Below, piece by piece: positions 17,288 through 29,299 of a stretch of 38,128 bases of DNA (positions are counted from its first letter, which is position 1; every line of letters begins with the position of its first letter). The DNA comes from Streptomyces thinghirensis (GTDB lineage Bacteria; Actinomycetota; Actinomycetia; Streptomycetales; Streptomycetaceae), in NCBI GenBank assembly GCA_021502835.1, contig JAKFGP010000039.1:1-38128 (forward strand). The letters run 5' to 3'. The notes below the pieces were generated by a model that worked only from the letters and a program-made list of their open reading frames with translations, made no database searches and was not told the origin of the DNA. A program made the translations under genes and the position numbers.

Positions 17288-18203
17288 TCACAGGTTGGTC
17301 CATGGTCGGGGTTTGCCGCCGGTCAGGGCGTCCACACCGCTTGGGCGGGTCCGTGGTGTTCGATGTCTTCGAGGATGGCCGCTCCAAGGCGTACTTCGCG
17401 GGCGAGGTGGGCGACGAGGGGTGCTGGGCGACCATGGCCTGGAGGTCGCTGATCCGGTTGTCGAGTCCGGTGCGGGAGGCGCCGGTGAGGATGAACAGGA
17501 CGCGGGGGAAGACCGGGTACCAGCGCAGCCAGGCGGGTCCTGCGGTGTTCGTCCTTCGGCGGCCGACGGGTTGGGCCTCGTACTGGAGCAGCCGGGCGTA
17601 TTCGATGAGTTTCACGGCCAGGCGTTCGCTGCTCATGGTGGTGCGGTCGACTTCGATGAAGGCGCGCAGTTTCTGCCGGTGGTCGGGGCCGGTGACGGTG
17701 TAGTACATGACCGCGTCGGCCGTGACCCGTTCTCCTTCGCCGATGGAGTGGGACACCTCCGGGGTCCAGTCCCACGGGCCGTGTTCGTGTCCGAGGCGGC
17801 GGGCGTCGGTGGCGAAGGCCAGGTGGGCGCGTACGACGGCGAGCGTGTGGCTGGTCTTCAGTGAGGCAGCGGTGGCCGAGGTGATGGGGTATGGCGGCCG
17901 AGTCCCGCAGGGGCGGGCAGGTCGCGGGTCAGGCGGGCTCCTTCGGGGGTCGGGTACCAGGCGTGGGTGCGTGAGCGGTTCGCGTCCGGCAGCACCGTGG
18001 AGTCGGCGAAGCCGTCGGAGCGCAGCTTGTTCAAGACCCTGGACATCAGCTGGCGTGTCCCTTTGGGACGCAGCATGCAGCGCAGCTGGCTGGTGGTGGC
18101 GATGCGGTGCTGGCCAGGGCGGCCAGCACCTGCAGACGCAGGGGTTCGGCCGGGAGTGGGGGGACAGGCTGGTGGGTGCAGTTTGCTGTGCCGGTCTGGT
18201 CAT
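17288..18203 (-). CDS. Replication-relaxation family protein, frameshifted
   Basis: The N-terminus (MTRPAQQTAPTSLSP at 18203, behind AAAGGACC) leads, after frame changes, into a winged-helix domain: LPAEPLRLQVLAALA, then MLRPKGTRQLMSRVLNKLRS and DGFADSTVLPDANRSRTHAW. The long in-frame core has ATAASLKTSHTLAVVRAHLA, WTPEVSHSIGEGERVTADAV and the diagnostic FIEVDRTTMSSERLAVKL, then PRVLFILTGASRTGLDNR. The frame changes near 17400 and 17325, and it ends KPRPWTNL at 17288. This family occurs on Streptomyces plasmids and is associated with replication or DNA relaxation. The mechanism is poorly known. Confidence 0.8.
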
Positions 18204-18264
18204 TCAGGTCCTTTCGACTGCGCGAGCCTGGGGCGGCTGTGCCGCCGATCAGCAGACCCTTCGT

Positions 18265-18383
18265 CCCCGACCAGAGCCCCGACCACGGGACCCCGACCAT
18301 GGTCACGAACGCATAACGCCCCAGGCGGGGGCGGTGGTCGGGATGTTCGGCCCCGACCATGGGCCCGACCACGGCCCAGACCA
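18265..18383. repeat. CCCCGACCA iterons upstream of the replication-relaxation gene
   Basis: CCCCGACCA occurs at 18265, 18277, 18291 and 18351, with close variants CCCGACCA at 18364 and CCCAGACCA at 18375, and one inverted TGGTCGGG at 18335. Spacing within the two direct clusters is 12-14 bp. The word also makes up repeat family 1 at 2360-3205, and the 24 bases at 18350-18373 are identical to 2383-2406. It lies 60-180 bases before the start of the minus-strand gene, so it may be an operator or replication site. Confidence 0.7.
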
Positions 18384-18637
18384 CGGGACGGCATGCCCGG
18401 GCGGTCAGGCCGACGGCTCCCCGGGCCCGGGCAAGGCGGCAGAATTCTTGAACGAGGGCAGGTTCCGACGCGCTTGGGCGATGGCCGGTCCGCAGCAGCC
18501 GTAGCTGCTGCGGGACGCGGTGGCGAGCCGCGTCATGCCGGCCATCGTGCGGCATCCGGCCCGCAAGGGACCAGCAATCCCGTAACCGGATGCCGCGTCT
18601 GTGGGGCGGTGGGCGGATGAGCGCTCACCGCTGGTTG

Positions 18638-19337
18638 TTACCTTCGGGTGCTGCGCTGGGCGGCCTGCTCGAGGATCCGCCGGCGCGTCCACCGTCGGCG
18701 CCCGCCGTTCTCCGAGAGCGCGTCGGGGTTTCCAGCAGGGGCAGGTTGCCCTGGGAGAGGCTGCTGGAGAAGGAGTTGACACTCTTGAATCCCAGCAGTG
18801 CGGCCGCCTGGGTGGCGCCCAGGAGCTCGTCCGGGTCCCCGTCGACGGGCACGTCGGGCAGGGTGGCGCCGTGCGCTTGGCGCCGGCGCGTTTGCCGCGG
18901 CCGGGCCGGGTGGCCATCCAGTCCAGCAGGGTCTGCACGCGCCACAGCTGCCGGCGGTAGGGGTTCGCTGAGGTCCCCCATCTCCTCGACGACGTCGGGC
19001 TCGGGGAAGTAGCCGGGGTGGTCGCGGACGTAGGTGTTGACCTGGTTGGGGGTTCTTGTAGCCCAGGAACCTCGGAGGCCTCGGCCGCGTTCAGCAGATC
19101 CTCCGGATTGCGGGAGGGCGGCGTGTGGCCACGGAGTCTGGCCTGGCTGCGGCTTGCGAACCACTCGGTGACCTCCCCGTGGTCCCACAGCCGGGCGCGT
19201 CCGCGCATGCCGGCGGTCTCGGGGAAGCCGTTCTCGGCACGCTGGCCGTAGAGCATGCTGATCCGCGCGGGAGACAGGCCCTGCTCGGCCGCGATCTCGG
19301 CAGCGTCGGCCAGGCGAGGCTCACGGCGCGAGGTCAT
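18638..19337 (-). CDS. Multi-HTH (excisionase-like) DNA-binding protein, frameshifted
   Basis: The start ATG 19337 has GGAGGG eight bases upstream. The sequence shows three related DNA-binding modules: LADAAEIAAEQGLSPARISM with GRARLWDHGEVTEWFASRSQ, NAAEASEVLGYKNPNQVNTY (after a frame change) with HPGYFPEPDVVEEMGD, and ELLGATQAAALLGFKSVNSF with SLSQGNLPLLETP. Between them RRQLWRVQTLLDWMATRPGR matches the wing region. The total is about 233 residues. The family is known from Streptomyces plasmids next to replication-relaxation genes. It could regulate the operon or bind the adjacent CCCCGACCA iterons. Confidence 0.65.
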
Positions 19338-19458
19338 GGCACAACCCTCCTGTCCCAGCAGGGCGAGCCGGTCCGACCCGCAACCCACATAATGGCAGAA
19401 GTGTTGTGTGGGGTCTAGTCCGTCGCCGACATCTTCACTCGCGGTCGGCCCCAGCCGG

Positions 19459-19800
19459 TCACTCTTCGGGGACCAGGCTCACACCGCGGCGGGCTGCGTC
19501 CTCGGCCAGCTGGGGTAGGCCATGGCGGCCGGAGTCATCTCCCCATTCGGACAGAGCCAGAAGCAGGACCAGTTCATCGCGGCCCTGGGACACCTGGCAC
19601 GGCAGGCCGGCCGCGGTCACGGCCGCCACCAGGTCCCCGGCTGACGTCCCGGCGCAGCGGGCTGCCACGGTGCGGCGCAGGTCCTCGAAGCCCCGCTGGT
19701 ACAGCTCACTGGCTTCGTGCGGGAGCAGCATCAGGTCGGCGTCGTGGCGGTCCGGGGCGGCCGCGGCCAGGTCGAGGAGGCGCTGCGTGGTCGTCATCAT
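19459..19800 (-). CDS. Hypothetical protein, 113 aa, intact
   Basis: An uninterrupted frame starts MMTTTQRLLDLAAAAPDRHD and contains LLPHEASELYQRGFEDLRRT and GRDELVLLLALSEWGDDSGR, ending LVPEE. It is mostly helical by appearance, with no signal or membrane segment. GAAGGG lies ten bases before the start. The function is not recognised. It sits between the PAPS-reductase-like gene and the HTH gene on the same strand. Confidence 0.65.
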   Translation of the reverse strand: MMTTTQRLLDLAAAAPDRHDADLMLLPHEASELYQRGFEDLRRTVAARCAGTSAGDLVAAVTAAGLPCQVSQGRDELVLLLALSEWGDDSGRHGLPQLAEDAARRGVSLVPEE

Positions 19801-19836
19801 CAGCAGTATGCCCTTCAGGCGGGATCGTCGGGCGTG

Positions 19837-20861
19837 TCAGTGGGGAGCGGTGCAGCCGTCGCACAGGGCACGGCCGGCGCGGCGGGCCAGCTCCGGCTTC
19901 TTGCGCGGTTCGCGCCTCAGTGCCTGGCGGACCTGCGTCTGCAGGGCGGTGAAGTCCGGTCCGTCGTCCGGGCAGACGATGCCGGGGTCGGGGGCCTCGC
20001 AGTGTGCGGCGTGCCGGATCAGGTCGGTGATCCGCCAGTCCGGGCGGAAGCTGTCGCCACGCGTCTCGTTCGGCCTCGGCGTACAGGGCGGCCAGCCGCG
20101 GCCGCCGCCCGATGGTGAGCAGCAGGTCGCGGCGGGAGGCGAAGACGCACAGCGAGCAGGAGCAGCGGGAGGTGCCCAGCCAGTCGCCGGCGCCGGGTAC
20201 GGAGTCGTAGGTCCAGCAGGAGGGTACCGGCGCATCGGCGTGCCACTCCTTGACCGCGTCGGTCGTCCAGTCCTTGACGGGCAGCCACTCGTCGAGGATC
20301 CGTGCGCTGTTGGCCTGCACGGTGCGGAAGGCCGGGCGCTTCTTGCGGTCGGCTCCCTCGTCGCTGCGCAGGCCCAGGACCTTCAGGATCCGTACGGGCC
20401 GGCCGAGCTCGCGGGTCAGGCGGCTGACCATCGGTGTCCAGGCGCTGGAGACGACGCCTTCCTTGGCGGCCTTGCGGCAGTACAGGCTGCCCGTGCGGGG
20501 AACCGCCCGTAGGCCGCGATCTCGGTGAGCAGGCTGTGCGGCATCCGTGTGCCGTCCGGGCCCGGCAGCGTGCGGGTGACCTCGACGTGCCGGTCGGCCG
20601 GCACTCCGAAAGCGGCGCTCTGCAGCGCGGCGAGCTCGGAAACCCCCGGGTAGCGGACGCCGTCGAGACGACCGGCGGCCACTCCAGCACTCCGAGGCTG
20701 GAGTGGTAGGAGATCACCCGGTCGTCGACGCCGGCGGCTCGGGCGGCGTCCATGAAGACGGCCATCATGACCGCGCTGTCCTTGCCGCCGGACAGCTGAG
20801 GTGCGAGGAGATCGTACGAGGTCAGGTCGGGTGAGGTGGGCGCAGCGGAACGCGAAGCCAT
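19837..20861 (-). CDS. PAPS-reductase-like ATP pyrophosphatase family protein, frameshifted
   Basis: The start at 20861 gives MASRSAAPTSPDLTSYDLLA followed by the PP-loop SGGKDSAVMMAVF (residues 24-29 SGGKDS) of the PAPS reductase/adenine alpha-hydrolase superfamily. Then, over frame changes, come YPGVSELAALQSAAFGVPAD, RFPRTGSLYCRKAAKEGVV, RILKVLGLRSDEGADRKKRP and a cysteine cluster (SRCSCSLCVFASRRDLLL). The C-terminus ends ALCDGCTAPH, adding two more Cys. Such stand-alone plasmid or phage members resemble DndC-type DNA sulfur proteins and sulfate-reduction enzymes. The neighbouring Mom-family gene suggests a DNA modification role, which is inference. Confidence 0.75.
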
Positions 20862-20889
20862 GACAGAACTCCAGTGGGGGCGCAAGAAC

Positions 20890-21846
20890 TGGGTGGTGGG
20901 ACGGGTGGGGCGAGCCGGCGGGCGCCGGTGCGGAGAGCCGCTCCGGGCCGCCGTGTGCTCGGGGTCGGGGCATTTGGGGTAGGGCGGGAGCGAGGGGGAC
21001 GCCGAGCTTGATGTCCCTCCCCGTTCGCGCCGGGTACGGCCGAGCCGGAAGACCCAACGGTGGGCACCGCGGTGGCGGACGTTGCGGGCGCCAATCGCCG
21101 CCAGGGCCTCGTGCAGCCACCGCGCCGGGTCGCACCCGGTCCGGGGCCGCGGCGCACCGAGCGCCAGGAGCTGAGCGGTGGCGTACTCATAGCCCTGCTC
21201 CTGGCGGCGGATCTTCTGCGCCGTCCGGTCGTGGAAGACGGTGCCGTCCGGCAGGAGCTTCACGGTGCGGGCGGTCGCACGGCCGGTGTACAGGGCGTTC
21301 GTCGCCGCATAGATCGTCCCGACGTGCCCGGGCATGACCAGGAGTCCGGAGGCGGTCCGCCGCGGCACCGGGTCGGCGAACGAGACGACACCGCGCACTC
21401 CCCTGGGCGAGCAGGGAGGTCGAAGCAGCGGGCGAGGAACCAGCTCGCGGTGTTGCCGGGGCACTCGTCCAGCAGGACGAAGCGGGAACACTCCACGGAC
21501 TCGGTGAAGGGGCGCAGCTCCGGCAGTGGTTTGGTGAGAACGGCCGTGTTCACCAGGTACTCCGAACGCGGCGACGCCGTTGAGCCGGCGGCCGCCGTCG
21601 GCGGTGTCGTACGAGGCCGAACTGCACCTTCACCGCGGGATAGGAACGGGAGTAGTGGTGGGCGAGCACAAACGCCTTGCCGGGCTCTTCGTCGGGGATG
21701 ACGTCCACGTCGTAGCGCCGGGCGTCAAAGCCCCGGTCCCGGACATGCCGCCAGGAGTGCTTCCCCGCGCGCCACCGCTGGCACCAGGGGGACGTGGTCG
21801 GCATCTCTGCGAGGTTCTCGAACGGAAGCGGCTCCTGCACCGGCAT
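20890..21846 (-). CDS. Mom-family DNA adenine modification protein, frameshifted
   Basis: The start ATG (21846) overlaps the previous stop (TGATG). In order I see GKAFVLAHHYSRSYPAVKVQ, then NTAVLTKPLPELRPFTESVE with CSRFVLLDECPGNTASWFLA, then GVVSFADPVPRRTASGLLV followed by PGHVGTIYAATNALYTGRA, and HEALAAIGARNVRHRGAHRW. These are the hallmarks of the GNAT-fold Mom family, whose phage Mu founder converts adenine in DNA to a methylcarbamoyl form that blocks restriction. Frames change near 21540, 21420 and probably 21010. The C-terminal end is uncertain because the present frame runs into the next gene. It is likely an anti-restriction modification protein. Confidence 0.8.
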
Positions 21847-22401
21847 CACGGCGTCTCCCCGCGTGCCGGGTCCACCGCAGGAGAGGAGCTGGCGAAGAGG
21901 GAGAGCTGCCCGTCCGGATCCGGCGCGGCCGCCGTACCGGGCGCAGCCCGCCGGCCGTCGGGGCTGCGCTTCGCAGTCTTCGGTGGCCTGGCCAGCCTGC
22001 CCTCGTCGCTGTCGCCGTCGGCGTCGGCGGCGATGTGGGTGTGGGTGCAGGGGGCAGGTCCACCGGCAGGGGCGCTCGCTGGAGCGGTACCGGATCACGG
22101 CGACGACGAACCCGTCGCGGTCGGTCATGGTGCCGGCGTCGTCGTCGACGCGGGGGCCGTTGGTGCTGACGCACTGGTCGTGGTGGCCGGACCTGCAGGG
22201 GTGGCAGGTGCCGCGCTCGCACGAGCACCAGCGGTGGAATCCGTGAGGGTAGGCGGCATCGATGCGGCGCAGCGCTTTGGTCCAGGCGTTCGCGCGGACC
22301 CAGGCACCTTCCGCGTCGCTCATCGGGGAGGTAAGTGGGACGGGTATGGGGTCGAGGATGCCCATGATCGAGGCGCCCACGTAACGCAGCCAGGTGGTCA
22401 T
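21846..22401 (-). CDS. DUF6248-like Cys-rich protein, one frameshift
   Basis: The start ATG 22401 is preceded by GGAGAG. The sequence MGILDPIPVPLTSPMSDAEG, AWTKALRRIDAAYPHGFHRW, then CSCERGTCHPCRSGHHDQC, VDDDAGTMTDRDGFVVAVIR and ERPCRWTCPLHPHPH follow, which I associate, from memory, with the DUF6248 family of Streptomyces. The closely spaced Cys and His residues suggest zinc binding. After a frame change the C-terminus ends LFASSSPAVDPARGETP, and its TGA overlaps the mom-like ATG. The function is unknown. Confidence 0.65.
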
Positions 22402-22424
22402 GTCGTCTCTCCAACCGGGGAGGT

Positions 22425-22963
22425 TCAGGTGAGGGGAGCTGGGCGGTGCAGCTCGAGGTCAGGGCGTGCCAGTGCGGCTCGAAGTTCTTGTCCTGTTTGT
22501 CGATCACGCGGGCGGGCGCGGTGGCGAACAGTTCCTCGGCCATCGGCCACGCCTGGCCGCGGGGGCGGAGCCAGGCGCGGGCGCGTCCGTACACCGGGTC
22601 GTGTTCGACGTCGACGCCGTGCCGCCCGGAGACGGAGACCAGCCGACGGGCCAGCTGCTGGGGGCGGCCGGTGTCGACGCGCTCGGTGGAGCGCATCACC
22701 GGGCGCCGCCCGCCGTCGGCCGACACCAGGAACAGCCGCCGCACGCGGTACAGCGCCCACGGCATGTCCAGCTCCCGCTCGAACGCCTGAAGGCACGCCC
22801 GGTCCCGCGGCCGCGCGCGGTCGAAGAACTCCAGCAGGCTCCTGCGGCCGTACAGCTTCGCGTTGGGGTTGAGGCTCATCGCCGTGTACTCCAGGCGCAG
22901 CACCTTCGCGGCGATGTCCGGGTGGGTGCGCATGCGCTCCAGGTGGGCGGGCAGGGCGCCCAT
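22425..22963 (-). CDS. Hypothetical protein in the Mom-like operon
   Basis: The frame from ATG 22963 reads MGALPAHLERMRTHPDIAAK, VLRLEYTAMSLNPNAKLYGR, FFDRARPRDRACLQAFEREL, MPWALYRVRRLFLVSADGG and FATAPARVIDKQDKNFEPHW. A change of frame near 22470 restores the end DLELHRPAPLT at 22425, 24 bases before the next start. No Shine-Dalgarno precedes the ATG, and the AT-rich CAATTCTCAATAACTTG lies just upstream, so the message could be leaderless or start elsewhere. I do not recognise a domain. Confidence 0.5.
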
Positions 22964-23099
22964 GGAGACGGGGAAGCGGCAAGTTATTGAGAATTGAGAC
23001 AGTGGTGCGACCTTTTCTGGAGGGTAGAGCCCGGCACTGGGCGGGAGGTGGTGCGCCGGGGCGTCGAGCGTTGTCAGAGCAGGGTGGTATCTGTGCCTC

Positions 23100-23661
23100 A
23101 TGAACATTGATCAGGCGGACCCTGCTGAGTTGGCTGCACTTCGTGCGGCGTTCGATGTCGATGACGGAGGTGAGTCGGCTCTTGGCCGGGAGGCGGTCCG
23201 TGCCTTTGAGGCAGAACACGGGATCGTGCTGCCCGAGCCCTATCGGACCTTCGTCGCGGAGATAGCGGACGGTTCGTCGTCCGGGCCGCCGGAGTATGGG
23301 CTGCTGCCGGTGGCGGAGCTGCCGGACGACTGGGGTGATGACGAGGAGGAACGGGACCTGAGTAAGCCGTTTCCGCTGGCCGAGGCATGGATGTGGGAGG
23401 AGGACGAGGCTCCGGCCGATGATGCCGACGAGCTCCTTGAGCAGGTCTATAACCAAGGCTCGATCGTGCTCGGCACCGACGGATGCGCGATGAATTGGCA
23501 TCTCATCGTCACTGGGCCTCACCGAGGTCACGTCTGGCTGATCAGCGACGTCGGTGCCGTCCCCCTTCGGGTCCCAGTTCGGGTTCACCACTGGGGGACC
23601 TGGCTTGCGGGGATGGGTCCGGCACTGGGCAGAGAACAAGCCTTGGTATGACGCTGCATGA
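23100..23661 (+). CDS. SMI1/KNR4 family protein (immunity-type), one frameshift
   Basis: The protein starts MNIDQADPAELAALRAAFDV and contains AVRAFEAEHGIVLPEPYRTF, VAEIADGSSSGPPEYGLLPV, GSIVLGTDGCAMNWHLIVTG and HVWLISDVGAVPF. This is the SMI1/KNR4 (SUKH) fold, used widely as immunity proteins against polymorphic toxins. The present frame ends at 23651, but removing one C from the CCCCC run at 23559-23563 gives the family-like end SQFGFTTGGPGLRGWVRHW, ENKPWYDAA, stopping at 23661. It is the only plus-strand gene in the accessory block, and no toxin gene is visible nearby. Confidence 0.8.
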
Positions 23662-23665
23662 CCTT

Positions 23666-24279
23666 CTAGGAGGGCGGTTGATCGTTGTCCCTACCTGCCC
23701 TGATCGACTGCATGAGCTGGGTAAGAGGGACGAAGCCGTCGGCCGTTCCGAGTTCTCTCGGAGTCGGGCCGGCCGGAGTGGGGGTGTCGGTGAGTCGCTC
23801 GGCGAGTGAAGCGACTGCTCCCGGTCGCCTTCGAGGGCCTCGCGTTCGTCGTCGGTGAGGTCGAGTTGTTCGAGCATCTGATCGATGCCGTCTCTCACAG
23901 CCAGGAGCTGTCCTCGGCTGGACTTCTTGGGGACGTAGAACGGGCAGCGCGCGCAGGCCAGTCGGTGGGGGCACTTGGCCAAGAAGTCGTAGCTGCAGTA
24001 GCCCTCGCCCAGGTCGTAGTACTTCCAGGGCTGTTCTCCGCCGGCGGCGGCTCCGGTGAGGATGGATTCGCGGTCGATCAGGACCTGGATGGTGCGCACG
24101 TTGCGGGCGAAGTAGTCGGCGCCGCGCAGTGAGACGGCGGCCAGGATCAGGTCGCCGTCGACGACGTCGTCGGCCCGGGCCACGCGTGCGTGAACGGGAT
24201 CGTGGAGTAACGGGGCATGGTCGGCGTCCTGGGGATAGCAGGTGACGACGGCTTCGAAGAATTCGACGTTCTCAGCCAC
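23666..24279 (-). CDS. Recombinase/integrase C-terminal-type protein (remnant or stand-alone)
   Basis: From ATG 24279 the first 65 residues (MAENVEFFEAVVTCYPQDAD, LILAAVSLRGADYFARNV) are not typical, but the rest matches the C-terminal tail of Streptomyces tyrosine-type recombinases: IQVLIDRESILTG, EQPWKYYDLGEGYCSYDFL, AKCPHRLACARCPFYVPKKS, SSRGQLLAVRDGIDQML and LTDDEREALEGD. The C...C..H...C..C cluster suggests a zinc site. No catalytic recombinase core is upstream. The end after a frame change near 23820 is LTDTPTPAGPTPRELG and DNDQPPS. It is either a truncated integrase or a domain recruited to a new protein. Confidence 0.55.
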
Positions 24280-24459
24280 GGGGGTGTCCTCTGGTTCTCG
24301 TCAGGGGTGGCATGGGTTTCCGGGCATGGAAGGCGGCTGGGCCTGGAGCAGGGAGAAGGGTCGCCATGAGGCCGGGCGGCGTACTGCTGGCCGGGCAGGC
24401 AGGGCGCGGCCGGCGGAAGGGGTGACTGCCGCTGGTGCGGCGGTGGGATCGCGCAGGGC

Positions 24460-24487
24460 GCGGCACCGGCCGGCGAACCGGTGCCGC
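24460..24487 (-). terminator. Perfect 10-bp hairpin after ssb
   Basis: GCGGCACCGG pairs with CCGGTGCCGC around an 8-base loop, beginning 24 bases beyond the ssb stop. This is a good candidate terminator for the ssb transcript. Confidence 0.65.
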
Positions 24488-24510
24488 ACCGGGTGGCGGT
24501 TGGGGGGCGG

Positions 24511-25035
24511 TCAGCGGCCGACGTGAAGGGGAGTGCCGTCGGCTGCTGCGGGGGAAGGAGTGTCGCCGGACCAGCCTGATGACCTTCGCTCATCCCACCG
24601 GGCGGGCGGGTTGCCCGGTCGTCTCGTGGCAGGGCGGGAGGAGGACGGCGGTGCCGGGGAGGGTGGTGCGGTGACCGGCGCGGCGGCGGCCGGGCTGGGC
24701 AGGCTGGTCTCGGTGTAGGCGATGCGCTGGCGCAGGCTGATGCCGATGTCGTCGGCGCTCAGGTAGACGGCGTTGTCCCGGATCTCGGTGATCCGTCCCT
24801 GACCTGGATGCTGACCCCGTTGACGAGGGACTCGGCGGCGTTTCGGGCCAGGGTGCGCCAAGCGGTGCACACGTAGCGGATCGGAGTGCCGTCACGCCAC
24901 TTCTGTGCGGCGGCGTCCCACCGGGCGGGTGTGTCGGTGAGGCGGAAGCGGCAGACGGCGATGCCGGATTCGGTGAAGCGGACTTCTACGTCTCCGGTGA
25001 CGGTGGCCGCTGACGTGGGTGACGGAAGGGGTCAT
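24511..25035 (-). CDS. Single-stranded DNA-binding protein, frameshifted
   Basis: The ATG at 25035 follows an excellent GGGAGGTGA. After the first residues (MTPSVTHVS) the OB-fold appears over two frame changes: GDVEVRFTESGIAVCRFRLT, DTPARWDAAAQKWRDGTPIR with YVCTAWRTLARNAAESL, then GRITEIRDNAVYLSADDIG. A proline/serine-rich tail (PSPAAAAPVTAPPSPAPPS) follows. The end PLHVGR lacks the acidic DDxPF tip of housekeeping SSB, as in many plasmid SSBs. It would protect single-stranded DNA during plasmid replication or transfer. It is driven by the CACTATTAT promoter just upstream and terminated at 24487-24460. Confidence 0.8.
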
Positions 25036-25040
25036 GTGAA

Positions 25041-25382
25041 TCACCTCCCTGAAGACAAATAATAGTGGGTTGAACTGTGGGTCAACCCCCAGTCGCCGCT
25101 CGCCGCCCTCGGGCTTGCCTCGTCGGACCAGAGCGTCACCTCCTCGCAGCGCAGGTCCCACCGGCGCAGTACCCACGCCCGGCCGGCCCTCTGTGTCGTG
25201 TGGGCGATGGGGGCGGCGACGCCGAAGCGCCGCAGCCATGAGCTGAGGATGTCGGCGGTCTCGGCGCCCGGCCATTCGCCGGTGCGGGCCTGGAGGTCGT
25301 CCATCAGTGCGGCCAGATCGATGACGGCCGCGCCTTCGGGCGTGGCCGGGTCCGGTGTGATCAGCACGGCAGGCTCCTTCAT
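25041..25382 (-). CDS. Hypothetical protein, 113 aa
   Basis: The frame MKEPAVLITPDPATPEGAAV, IDLAALMDDLQARTGEWPGA, DILSSWLRRFGVAAPIAHTT, RRWDLRCEEVTLWSDEASPR is uninterrupted. Its last codons (THYYLSSGR) are read from the ssb promoter, so either the promoter lies inside the gene or a missed frameshift hides an earlier stop. The function is not recognised. Confidence 0.55.
   Translation of the reverse strand: MKEPAVLITPDPATPEGAAVIDLAALMDDLQARTGEWPGAETADILSSWLRRFGVAAPIAHTTQRAGRAWVLRRWDLRCEEVTLWSDEASPRAASGDWGLTHSSTHYYLSSGR
25059..25086 (-). promoter_or_regulatory. CACTATTAT-family promoter P1 (ssb)
   Basis: On the minus strand TTGACC (25080-25085) is followed after 15 bases by TATTAT (25059-25064) within CACTATTATTTG. 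The spacer contains a second GTTCAACCCA that partly repeats GTTGACCCA. The ssb ATG lies 24 bases from the -10, leaving a short leader with a strong ribosome site. Confidence 0.7.
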
Positions 25383-25384
25383 GA

Positions 25385-25418
<34 letters not shown>

Positions 25419-25443
25419 TGCGGTGTGCGGGGAGAGGGACTGG

Positions 25444-26051
25444 TCACCCGTCCATGGGGGCGTTCCACAGGTCCATCAGCTGTTGTTGCCCGGGGGTGAG
25501 TGCGGCCGGGCGCAGCAGGCGTGTGCGCAGGACGGGCACGTCGACGCTGATGCCGGTGGGCACTTGGGGCCTGCCGGGCGGGTGGACGAGACGGTAGGTC
25601 CGCGTGTGGATCATCCAGGCCTCGTACCGGTCGGCGGGGCTGCCGCTGCGCGCGGTGTGGCCTTCGTCGGGGAGGGAGAGGGACACGGACAGGACGGGTC
25701 GGTGCACGGGCGTCCGGCTGGGTGGCCGGCCAGGACCGGGCGGCGGCGGTAGTGCGTCGCGGTGCCGTTGAGTATGGGGCAGTGCGCGGCGGTGTACGGC
25801 AGGCACTCGGGGTGCAGCGCCGGTTCGGGGGAGCAGCCCTGGACGACGTCGGCCGGACGGACGATCAGGTAGCACCGTTCGTCCAGGGGCTGGCCGCAGA
25901 TCTGGCACAGGCGCCGCAGGAAGGCGGTGAGGGCCCGGTCGGCGTGCAGGCTGCCGAAGGCGGCATGGCCGCCGTGGACCAGGGACACCCACGGCACGAC
26001 CAGGCCGCCTGCCCGAGGCCGGCGCGCACAGCGTTGGGGTATCGAGTGCAT
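25444..26051 (-). CDS. Hypothetical protein with zinc-finger-like CxxC, one frameshift
   Basis: The protein reads MHSIPQRCARRPRAGGLVVP, WVSLVHGGHAAFGSLHADRA, LCQICGQPLDERCYLIVRPA, ALHPECLPYTAAHCPIL and GRPCTDPSCPCP, then, one frame over, VSVSLPDEGHTARSG, DRYEAWMIHTRTYRLVHPPG and LTPGQQQLMDLWNAPMDG. The CxxC, HPEC and CP spacing suggests a metal-binding domain seen in several Streptomyces plasmid proteins of unknown role. It belongs to the ParB-led gene string. Confidence 0.6.
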
Positions 26052-26091
26052 CTGTCTTTTCCTTCTGGTTCGGGGGCGGGGCGAGTGGGCG

Positions 26092-26511
26092 TCAGTTGCC
26101 GGGCGGTGGGGGAGGGCCGGTCAGGAGGTCGTCCCAGTTGGCGTAGTGGCAGCCGGTTGCCTCGTGCAGGCGAAGGTGCAGCCAGGACAGGTCCTGTCCG
26201 GTGCGGATGACGGCTTCGGCGCCGATGGCGGCGGCGCGTGGGTAGACCGTGTCGTCGTCTGTGCCGGTGAGTGCGAGGACCAGGCCGGGGCGCTGGGGCA
26301 TGTGGCGCAGCGTGAACGCGGTGTAGCTGCGCTCGTCCAGGATCACGAGCGGGGCAAGCCGGTACTCCTCGGCGCTGAACAGCGGCGAAGGCATGCGTCG
26401 CAGGGGAACCGTGCAGGGCAGCAGGCCGACCGGGTCGGCTTCCGGGCTGTCGCTGATGACGAGCACCGGCGTTCGCGCCCGGTCCCCGGGCGCTGGCGCT
26501 GAGTTGGTCAT
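26092..26511 (-). CDS. Hypothetical protein, 139 aa, intact
   Basis: The uninterrupted frame starts MTNSAPAPGDRARTPVLVIS and includes PVGLLPCTVPLRRMPSPLFS, APLVILDERSYTAFTLRHMP, GLVLALTGTDDDTVYPRAAA and WLHLRLHEATGCHYANWDDL. The alternating hydrophobic strands and helices look like a compact alpha/beta domain. No family is recognised. It is in the same direction as its neighbours. Confidence 0.65.
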   Translation of the reverse strand: MTNSAPAPGDRARTPVLVISDSPEADPVGLLPCTVPLRRMPSPLFSAEEYRLAPLVILDERSYTAFTLRHMPQRPGLVLALTGTDDDTVYPRAAAIGAEAVIRTGQDLSWLHLRLHEATGCHYANWDDLLTGPPPPPGN

Positions 26512-26730
26512 GGGTGCGGAGCGTCGTTTTCGTCGTCGGGGAGGAACGCAGGGCCGGGCAGGCGGGGCGGGGCGAACCGCGTGGGCAGCCCCCGCCCGCC
26601 CGTGCCCACGGGTCAGAAGCGGGGGCGGTCAGTCGTGTGGCGTGTTCGCGGCGGGGTCGTCGGTTGCCGGGTGGGGCCATTGCCAGCTGCCGTGGTGGAG
26701 GTCTGTCCAGCGGCAGGCGCCGTCCGGGTT

Positions 26731-27224
26731 TCACTTGACGCGCACGGGGCCCCAGCCGCCGGTCGGGTCGGTGCGGCGGATCGCCGCCGGGCGGCCGAGG
26801 AGGTGGGTGCGCCGCAGGTTGCTGCCGTCGAGCTGGGGGGCCTGGCCGTGCTGGTCCAGGGCTTGGAGTACGTCGGCGAGCAGCGCCCAGAGCTGGTCGG
26901 GGTCCTGGAGCAGGTTGCGGATGCGGCGGTCGGAGGTGACGATCCGGCGGGCGGCTTCGTCGCCGCGGCGGTACCAGGTGCCGTTGCCCGGCGCCGCCCG
27001 CACGGCGGTGCTCAGTTCCTTCACGTCCGGGCTGGCCGGTTGTCCGGGATGGGTGAGGATGCGGAACGTCTCACCCATGGCCAGGTAGTAGGCGGCTTCG
27101 TGGGCCGGCTTCAGCGGGAGGTCGCCTGCGTTGGCGGGTGACGGCTCGGACAGGGGGCGCACTGCAGCTCATGTCGCTGGCGTCCGCTCGGGCGGCTGCG
27201 ACGGCGCCGGGGGAGATGATCATG
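26731..27224 (-). CDS. Hypothetical protein, start uncertain
   Basis: The secure part is PLSEPSPANAGDLPLKPAHE, AAYYLAMGETFRILTHPGQP, DEAARRIVTSDRRIRNLLQD and LWALLADVLQALDQHGQA, ending WGPVRVK at a TGA (26731-26733). The start may be ATG 27224 (MIISPGAVAAARADASDMSC) joined by a frame change near 27165, or ATG 27162. Beyond the TGA the same frame continues NPDGACRWTDLHHGSWQWPH, which looks protein-like, so the stop could be a TGG misread. The function is unknown. Confidence 0.55.
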
Positions 27225-27350
27225 GTCGTCTCTGCTTTCTGGGGACGGTCGTGCGGAGAGGGAAGCGGCCCCGCTCTGAGGGCTGTTGGGACCGCCGGGC
27301 AGGACAGGATGGCGAGCGCTCTGCCCTGCCCGGCGAGCCAAGGGGGGCGG

Positions 27351-27722
27351 TCAGTCCTCGATGAGCTCCAGGCAGGAGAGCGGGACGCCGTTGCCGGGCA
27401 GCCGGTACCGCTTGGTGCCCTCGGGGATGCGGTGGCGGCTGCGGGGGTCGGTGCGCAGCAGCCGGGTGGAGTCCTCGTCCAGCAGGAAGCCCGCGCGCGT
27501 GCCGGTGCGGTTGCGTTCCTGGACGGTGCCGGTGAGCCTGCGCAGGCAGGCCGGGCGCAGCGAGTCGGTGATCCGGGCTCGGGAGCCCGCCGTGATGCCG
27601 TTGTAGGCGGCGGAGTCCAGTTCACGCAGCCGCGTCGCGCACGCTTCCTGCACGGCTGCGACGGCGGAGGTGTCGGGCAGCTGGCTGATGTAGGCGCGGA
27701 CCTCGCTGATGCCGAGGGGCAT
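27351..27722 (-). CDS. Hypothetical protein, 123 aa, intact
   Basis: The frame MPLGISEVRAYISQLPDTSA, VAAVQEACATRLRELDSAAY, NGITAGSRARITDSLRPACL, GTRAGFLLDEDSTRLLRTDP and GNGVPLSCLELIED is unbroken and preceded by AGGTGAAG. It starts seven bases after the ParB-like stop, so it is very likely in that operon. No domain is recognised. Confidence 0.68.
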   Translation of the reverse strand: MPLGISEVRAYISQLPDTSAVAAVQEACATRLRELDSAAYNGITAGSRARITDSLRPACLRRLTGTVQERNRTGTRAGFLLDEDSTRLLRTDPRSRHRIPEGTKRYRLPGNGVPLSCLELIED

Positions 27723-27728
27723 GGCACT

Positions 27729-29299
<1,571 letters not shown>

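What the first reader, a model, noticed from the sequence alone, without database searches (positions are those of the whole stretch)
19837..22963. Mom-family gene coupled to a PAPS-reductase-like gene: candidate DNA hypermodification cluster
An unknown protein, a Cys-rich DUF6248-like protein, a Mom-family protein and an SGGKDS/Cys-cluster protein are consecutive, same-strand and partly overlapping (TGATG at 21846). Mom of phage Mu modifies adenine against restriction, and PAPS-reductase-like proteins include DNA sulfur-modification enzymes (DndC). A joint modification pathway would be a new plasmid anti-restriction or defence system.
Basis: partly seen in the sequence, partly recalled or inferred. 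Interest (0 to 1): 0.75.

Follow-up and report, generated by a model that had tools for sequence, protein, structure and literature searches.

The report
Plasmid DNA-modification island with Mom
The window holds a damaged copy of a gene island known from Streptomyces plasmids, in which a Mom-type adenine-modifying enzyme and other DNA-modifying enzymes take turns in a slot between two sulfur-enzyme-like proteins; it probably shields the element's DNA from restriction, but no chemistry has been shown.

Summary
The genes are real but the reading needs correction. DUF6248, Mom and a PP-loop 'PAPS reductase-like' protein (PAPS-B) lie in that order on the minus strand. The 'unknown protein' is the C-terminal half of a second PP-loop protein (PAPS-A). 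Mom and PAPS-B are each split over three reading frames, as are other long conserved genes of the window; the pieces show purifying selection, so sequencing indels are the likelier cause. Intact relatives on Streptomyces linear plasmids show ParB-SSB-(DprA)-PAPS-A-[slot]-PAPS-B-small protein-HTH, the slot holding Mom, a cytosine methyltransferase, both, or a small TGT-fold protein with DUF6248. In 394 Streptomycetaceae genomes, 9 of 14 Mom genomes also hold PAPS-A and 11 of 14 PAPS-B, above expectation. But in a wider scan only 7 of 38 Mom groups have PAPS within 1 kb, and PAPS pairs often lack Mom. A fixed Mom+PAPS pathway is not supported; an exchangeable anti-restriction modification island is. 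Mom-like and PAPS-like genes are already reported together in accessory genes of phages and a marine mobile element. Some Mom genes sit beside a DpdA-like TGT and an SspB-like gene. No chemistry was testable.

The parts
22433..22992 (-). C-terminal part (~res.
   Evidence: alignment with intact relatives, tblastn; intact relatives match phrog_424 at 1.7e-15 and 1.1e-16
21846..22401 (-). DUF6248, Cys-rich; probable frame change near 22055; stop overlaps the Mom start (TGATG)
   Evidence: PF19761 1.2e-47; sequence
20943..21846 (-). Mom-family protein, split over three frames
   Evidence: Mom profile hits, tblastn with L003/L005 Mom; dN/dS 0.21
19837..20861 (-). PAPS-B, second PP-loop protein (SGGKDS; C, CxCxxC, CxxC), split over three frames
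   Evidence: tblastn with L002 PAPS-B, 91-94% in the first three pieces, 85% in the last; dN/dS 0.19-0.24, 0 of 60 conserved columns deviate
19459..19800 (-). 113-aa protein of unknown function, intact; follows PAPS-B in relatives
   Evidence: hyp115 profile; tblastn 77% with L006; no Pfam match
18641..19337 (-). helix-turn-helix protein, frame-broken; conserved downstream neighbour
   Evidence: HTH/DNA-binding families assigned on relatives
17291..18203 (-). replication-relaxation family protein, frame-broken
   Evidence: tblastn with L005/L006 annotated proteins
24514..25041 (-). single-stranded DNA-binding protein, frame-broken
   Evidence: tblastn with L005 SSB
27861..29046 (-). ParB N-terminal-domain protein, frame-broken
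   Evidence: tblastn with L005 ParB
23100..23651 (+). SMI1/KNR4 (SUKH-1) protein on the other strand, lying where the lost half of PAPS-A should be
   Evidence: PF09346 3.2e-8

Best explanation
The locus is a damaged copy of a plasmid self-protection (anti-restriction) island. In intact copies, plasmid-maintenance/entry genes (ParB, SSB, often DprA) are followed by PAPS-A, an exchangeable slot for DNA base-modifying enzymes, PAPS-B, a small protein and an HTH protein. SHOWN: order, strand, families, slot exchange, co-occurrence. INFERRED: in the slot, Mom puts a methylcarbamoyl group on N6 of adenine, a Dcm-like enzyme methylates cytosine, and P1 (a minimal TGT-like barrel) acts on guanine; each makes the element's DNA unfit for host restriction enzymes. 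PAPS-A and PAPS-B share with SspD a PP-loop and a C...CxxC pattern, and most likely adenylate a substrate and pass sulfur to it (or to DNA), as a pair that works alongside any of the slot enzymes rather than on Mom's product. DUF6248, translationally coupled to Mom and P1, would be a zinc-binding partner or regulator. In the window itself PAPS-A has lost its ATP-binding half, so this copy can at best be partly active.
Confidence: 0.5

Rival explanations
1. One joint pathway: PAPS-like enzymes and Mom act one after the other to make a single sulfur- or amide-bearing hypermodified adenine.
For: A PAPS gene within 1 kb of Mom in Streptomyces, Streptosporangium, Nucisporomicrobium, Nocardia and Sphingobium loci, in differing order.
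Against: Mom is exchanged for Dcm or missing beside the same PAPS pair; PAPS pairs without Mom and most Mom groups without PAPS.
Confidence: 0.12
2. A host-type defence system (Ssp/Dnd/BREX-related) that marks own DNA and cuts foreign DNA, not anti-restriction.
For: SspB-like DUF4007 (PADLOC SspB 8.2e-76) in L003; SspB-like and DpdA-like genes beside Mom in two genomes, G069 and G073; PADLOC also flags the island DprA as ShosA-like, 1.2e-29; a described system combines DUF4007, GNAT and TGT (PMC12839542, section 36 read).
Against: No nuclease, PglZ, SspC/DndD-type ATPase or cysteine desulfurase matched among the 20 island and neighbour proteins of L002, L003 and L004 scanned. Of loci L001-L129 and the window only L003, L101 and L124 match the DUF4007 protein; 4 of the 7 loci fetched for a divergent DUF4007 (L138-L141) show no Mom or PAPS; Mom with DUF4007 in 394 genomes is 2 against 0.5 expected, p 0.095.
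Confidence: 0.13
3. Unrelated cargo: plasmid-backbone genes that merely travel together; PAPS proteins serve sulfur metabolism or regulation.
For: ParB, SSB and DprA are also in the block; co-occurrence counts cannot exclude co-carriage; phage papers file PAPS-like genes under host metabolism (PMC10434257, PMC11318856, passages).
Against: Four-base overlaps of P1/DUF6248/Mom and PAPS/Mom/P1; recurrence of PAPS-Mom neighbourhood with changed order in other taxa.
Confidence: 0.17
4. In the window the cluster is a dead remnant (pseudogenes), whatever the intact system does.
For: PAPS-A is truncated at the site where L007 carries a recombinase tract; frame breaks in Mom and PAPS-B; one near-invariant Glu of Mom is read as Ala.
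Against: Frame breaks in long conserved genes across the window suggest base-calling indels; purifying selection in the pieces.
Confidence: 0.4

Closest known systems
Phage Mu Mom (DNA adenine methylcarbamoylase, PF25680, PDB 8bv8)
   Same: Homologous by profile (7.7e-10 to 8bv8; PF25680 91.5 bits for an intact relative); NCBI/UniRef already names many relatives 'Mom family adenine methylcarbamoylation protein'
   Different: On actinobacterial plasmids, ~300 aa, in an island with PAPS-like, TGT-like and Dcm genes; product not tested
Accessory gene sets holding both Mom-like and PAPS-like genes: marine 'Charybdis' elements (PMC12324425), a Psychrobacter phage (PMC10434257), a Clostridium prophage (PMC11318856)
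   Same: Mom-like, PAPS-reductase-like and (Charybdis) methyltransferase genes on one mobile element (passages)
   Different: No two-PAPS frame around a slot, DUF6248 or P1 is mentioned in the passages seen; genes not described as adjacent there
SspABCD / DndABCDE phosphorothioation (SspD/DndC PAPS-reductase-like)
   Same: PP-loop plus C...CxxC pattern; PAPS-B profile reaches SspD; SspB-like DUF4007 in a minority of loci
   Different: No SspC/DndD or cysteine desulfurase among the proteins scanned; two PAPS-like proteins instead of one; no PADLOC match for them
BREX-related capture (BRC) system with DUF4007 + GNAT + TGT (PMC12839542)
   Same: A DUF4007-TGT-Mom (GNAT) trio in L135 and L136
   Different: PglZ, DUF6079, STAND NTPase and HerA not recognised in the gene lists printed for these loci (read by eye)
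Plasmid leading-region anti-defence islands (PMC11541004)
   Same: SSB and methyltransferase beside other protective genes
   Different: Streptomyces plasmids; the words Mom and phosphoadenosine do not occur in that paper's main text; distance to oriT not determined here
Phage DpdA / 7-deazaguanine DNA modification (PMC6884629)
   Same: Many P1 relatives in actinophages are annotated 'DpdA-like tRNA-guanine transglycosylase'; P1 fold like TGT; a phrog_1279-type gene directly upstream of Mom or a Mom fragment in four genomes
   Different: P1 absent from the window; no preQ0 genes in the annotation tables of the plasmid loci shown; no sequence match to Tgt

Membership tests
Mom (PF25680) | Profile score above the curated cut-off | tested here: met
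   L003 Mom 91.5 bits vs 27.1; one window ORF tested gave 25.6, below it; window pieces match the local Mom profile at 4e-71 and 9e-27
Mom (PF25680) | Homology to the structurally solved Mu enzyme over the core | tested here: met
   8bv8_A, E 7.7e-10, profile 27-201
Mom (PF25680) | Intact open reading frame in the window | tested here: not met
   three frames
Mom (PF25680) | N6-methylcarbamoyl adenine in DNA | not testable with these tools
   needs nucleoside mass spectrometry
Mom (PF25680) | Upstream overlapping zinc-finger regulator, as Com in Mu (arrangement recalled) | tested here: inconclusive
   DUF6248 is Cys-rich and overlaps Mom by TGATG, but occurs without Mom (L004; Mom in 6 of 15 DUF6248 genomes)
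PAPS/APS reductase (CysH, PF01507) | PP-loop SGGxDS and fold | tested here: met
PAPS/APS reductase (CysH, PF01507) | C-terminal ECGLH catalytic cysteine (recalled) | tested here: not met
   A5 consensus ends in CDGC with no such motif
Dnd/Ssp phosphorothioation | DndC/SspD model match | tested here: not met
   no PADLOC family at E 0.1 for PAPS-A or PAPS-B; hhalign to SspD 5%; on the other side, the local PAPS-B profile finds SspD at 1e-6
Dnd/Ssp phosphorothioation | ATPase (SspC/DndD) and cysteine desulfurase nearby | tested here: inconclusive
   none among the 20 proteins of L002, L003, L004 scanned with PADLOC; other genes were not scanned, and a desulfurase may act from elsewhere (PMC8092258, passage)
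Dpd (7-deazaguanine) | TGT-type DpdA-like gene in the window | tested here: not met
   no hit of the P1 profile or of the phrog_1279-type profile in the window; P1 present in some relatives only
Leading-region anti-defence island | Next to oriT on the transferred strand | not tested
   oriT not mapped

The most novel reading that the evidence does not exclude
Streptomyces plasmids carry a modular armour in which several chemically different DNA marks are stacked on one molecule: N6-carbamoylmethyl adenine (Mom), 5-methylcytosine (Dcm-like), an exchanged guanine (TGT-like P1 or DpdA-like) and a sulfur mark laid by a two-protein PP-loop pair (PAPS-A/PAPS-B). The slot enzymes are swapped between plasmids to escape different host restriction systems, and the PAPS pair is the constant part. 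The direct pairing of Mom with TGT-type proteins (P1 or phrog_1279) may even make a joint GNAT-plus-TGT mark.
Probability: 0.18. Interest if true: 0.75.

Novelty: new variant of a known kind. Interest (0 to 1): 0.48.

Why it matters
DNA hypermodification is known mainly from phages; a plasmid island that swaps adenine-, cytosine- and possibly guanine-type modifiers between two constant PP-loop proteins would be a plasmid counterpart of phage anti-restriction and bears on how large Streptomyces plasmids enter restricting hosts. It also names uncharacterised partners (the PAPS-A/PAPS-B pair and DUF6248) whose function could be tested at once by mass spectrometry on existing strains.

Tried and rejected
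P1 in the window: first suspected from the order in L003, dropped when alignment showed the window's 'unknown protein' to be the PAPS-A C-terminus.

DUF6248 as a Com analogue: kept only as a possibility, because it occurs without Mom.

General Mom-TGT pairing through phrog_1279: 4 of 24 further Mom-bearing genomes have a phrog_1279 match (6 places), and none of the six ~3.7-kb stretches around them holds Mom or PAPS by profile.

A Mom-PAPS fusion: P0101 reads Mom into PAPS-B in one frame, but its linker looks frame-shifted and it stops early, so it is not used as evidence.

Phage DNA: no nucleotide match of window 19400-24300 in phages. Viral structure library: PAPS-B best hits are phage proteins named PAPS reductase.

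Literature: searches listed no title on Mom with PAPS-like genes on plasmids; 'DUF6248' occurs in none of the papers. Papers that hold both words were then opened: PMC10434257, PMC11318856 and PMC12324425 (passages) report both genes on one phage or element. PMC11309003 and PMC9301287 were seen only in the listing. The library is open-access only. Because of these papers I lowered my interest score slightly (0.52 to 0.48, and 0.78 to 0.75 for the novel case).
Full report
What is in the window. On the minus strand, from high to low coordinates, lie the C-terminal half of a PP-loop protein (22992-22433), DUF6248 (22401-21846), Mom (21846-~20943), a second PP-loop protein with SGGKDS and cysteine motifs (20861-19837) and an intact 113-aa protein (19800-19459). 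The Mom and PAPS-like genes are not intact: each is spread over three frames.

Are the breaks real? Longer conserved genes elsewhere in the window (ParB, SSB, the HTH protein, the replication-relaxation protein, an OmpA-named protein) are frame-broken too, while several short ones are open. Within the open pieces, dN/dS against close relatives is 0.21 for Mom and 0.19 to 0.24 for PAPS-B, and none of 60 near-invariant PAPS-B columns is changed. This fits indel errors in the sequence better than old decay. Two facts fit loss: PAPS-A lacks its N-terminal half, and a near-invariant Mom glutamate reads as alanine.

The unknown protein. Intact relatives are about 407 aa with a degenerate PP-loop (GLGADS) and C138, C219, C222 invariant in the eight sequences aligned; they match phrog_424, PAPS reductase, at 1.7e-15 (L003) and 1.1e-16 (L017), while the distant L053 copy matches no PHROG. 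The window keeps only the part after the CxxC. In L007 the same gene is split at the same codons by a tract with tyrosine recombinases (Phage_integrase), and its right-hand junction resembles that of the window; in L005 PAPS-B is split at its own CxCxxC codons. In the window a SMI1/KNR4 gene lies in the gap; one other ORF there (23542-24279) has no Pfam match.

The intact island. DNA search in plasmids gave 81 matching records; I opened the best eight, then six of the 102 plasmid records found with Mom and two of the 19 phage records found with P1. With profiles built from these the order ParB-SSB-(DprA)-PAPS-A-slot-PAPS-B-hyp115-HTH is whole or nearly whole in L001, L002, L004, L005, L007 and in genome contigs L017-L020. 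The slot holds: Dcm in L002 and L007; Dcm then Mom in L001; Mom in L005 and L006; P1-DUF6248-Mom in L003 and L017-L020; P1-DUF6248 in L004; a Mom fragment in L008. L003 lacks PAPS-B, and L006 and L008 lack PAPS-A. The window is DUF6248-Mom with P1 absent. Of the six plasmids opened through Mom, two have PAPS beside it (L010, L013) and four do not (L009, L011, L012, L016).

How general is it? A scan of genome contigs with a Mom alignment gave 49 loci, 38 groups at 90% identity. A PAPS gene lies within 1 kb of Mom in 7 of 38, within 5 kb in 8, within 10 kb in 10, on the same strand in all 10; several loci have short flanks. In 394 Streptomycetaceae genomes (drawn evenly from a larger group) Mom is found in 14, PAPS-A in 34, PAPS-B in 45, DUF6248 in 15 and DUF4007 in 15; only part of the candidates was scored for PAPS-A, PAPS-B and DUF6248, so these three are lower bounds. 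Overlaps: Mom/PAPS-A 9 (expected 1.2), Mom/PAPS-B 11 (1.6), Mom/DUF6248 6 (0.5), PAPS-A/PAPS-B 22 (3.9), PAPS-A/DUF6248 7 (1.3), DUF6248/PAPS-B 10 (1.7), hypergeometric p from 7.5e-5 to 1.7e-15; Mom/DUF4007 2 (0.5), p 0.095. These p-values ignore kinship and co-carriage. Mom lies within 10 kb of PAPS-B in 5 of 14 and of PAPS-A in 3 of 14. PAPS and Mom are also neighbours in Streptosporangium (with P1, overlapping by four bases), Sphingobium (339 bp, a small ORF between), Nucisporomicrobium (517 bp) and Nocardia (155 bp).

The PAPS pair without Mom. In L110-L114 the two PAPS matches are 51-69 bases apart (B-type first), with no Mom in the ~14 kb; in L115 and L116 they are about 180-190 bases apart, A-type first, again without Mom. 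In L110 and L113 a large protein that I read by eye as a conjugative relaxase follows about 3 kb downstream. So the PAPS pair is the more constant part and Mom an option.

Links to known systems. L003 carries an SspB-like DUF4007 protein (PADLOC 8.2e-76). In G069 and G073 an SspB-like gene lies 1.3-1.6 kb from Mom, and a DpdA-like gene (phrog_1279, 4.6e-78 and 7.6e-70 for the two tested) lies 33-48 bp upstream of Mom in G069, G073 and G211 and of a Mom fragment in G128 (the G128 fragment is not among the 14 Mom genomes). Four other divergent DUF4007 loci (L138-L141) show no Mom or PAPS. A 2026 survey describes a BREX-related capture system with DUF4007, a GNAT and a TGT, the GNAT sometimes fused to the TGT (PMC12839542, section 36 read). 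Among phages carrying only a DpdA gene, Orion had no deazaguanine while Salmonella phage 7-11 had a little dADG (PMC6884629, passages), so a lone TGT-like gene proves nothing.

Already in print. A marine mobile element has an accessory module with methyltransferases, PAPS-reductase-like and Mom-like proteins (PMC12324425); a Psychrobacter phage and a Clostridium prophage carry both genes (PMC10434257, PMC11318856; passages). The joint carriage is therefore not new; the two-PAPS frame with an exchangeable slot on Streptomyces plasmids was not seen in the passages and listings I read.

Verdict. The best reading is a plasmid anti-restriction island with exchangeable base modifiers between two PP-loop proteins. 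Chemistry is inferred from families, not shown.

Noticed in passing
window ~22985; L007 ~5238 and ~9054; L005 ~11355 and ~16101: Recombinase-bearing tracts (L007, L005) split PAPS-A and PAPS-B exactly at their conserved CxxC / CxCxxC codons, as if these codons were an attachment site; the window's PAPS-A ends at the same place.
   Followed up: partly
   Followed up: partly
window 17291-29299: Frame breaks in longer conserved genes, which suggest indel-rich sequence data rather than gene decay.
   Followed up: yes
window 23100-23651: SMI1/KNR4 (SUKH-1) gene on the plus strand inside the broken PAPS-A.
   Followed up: no
L006 1-6755: Type III CRISPR-annotated genes (RAMP, Cmr3 family, Cas6) upstream of the Mom-PAPS-B part on a 57-kb Streptomyces plasmid.
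   Followed up: no
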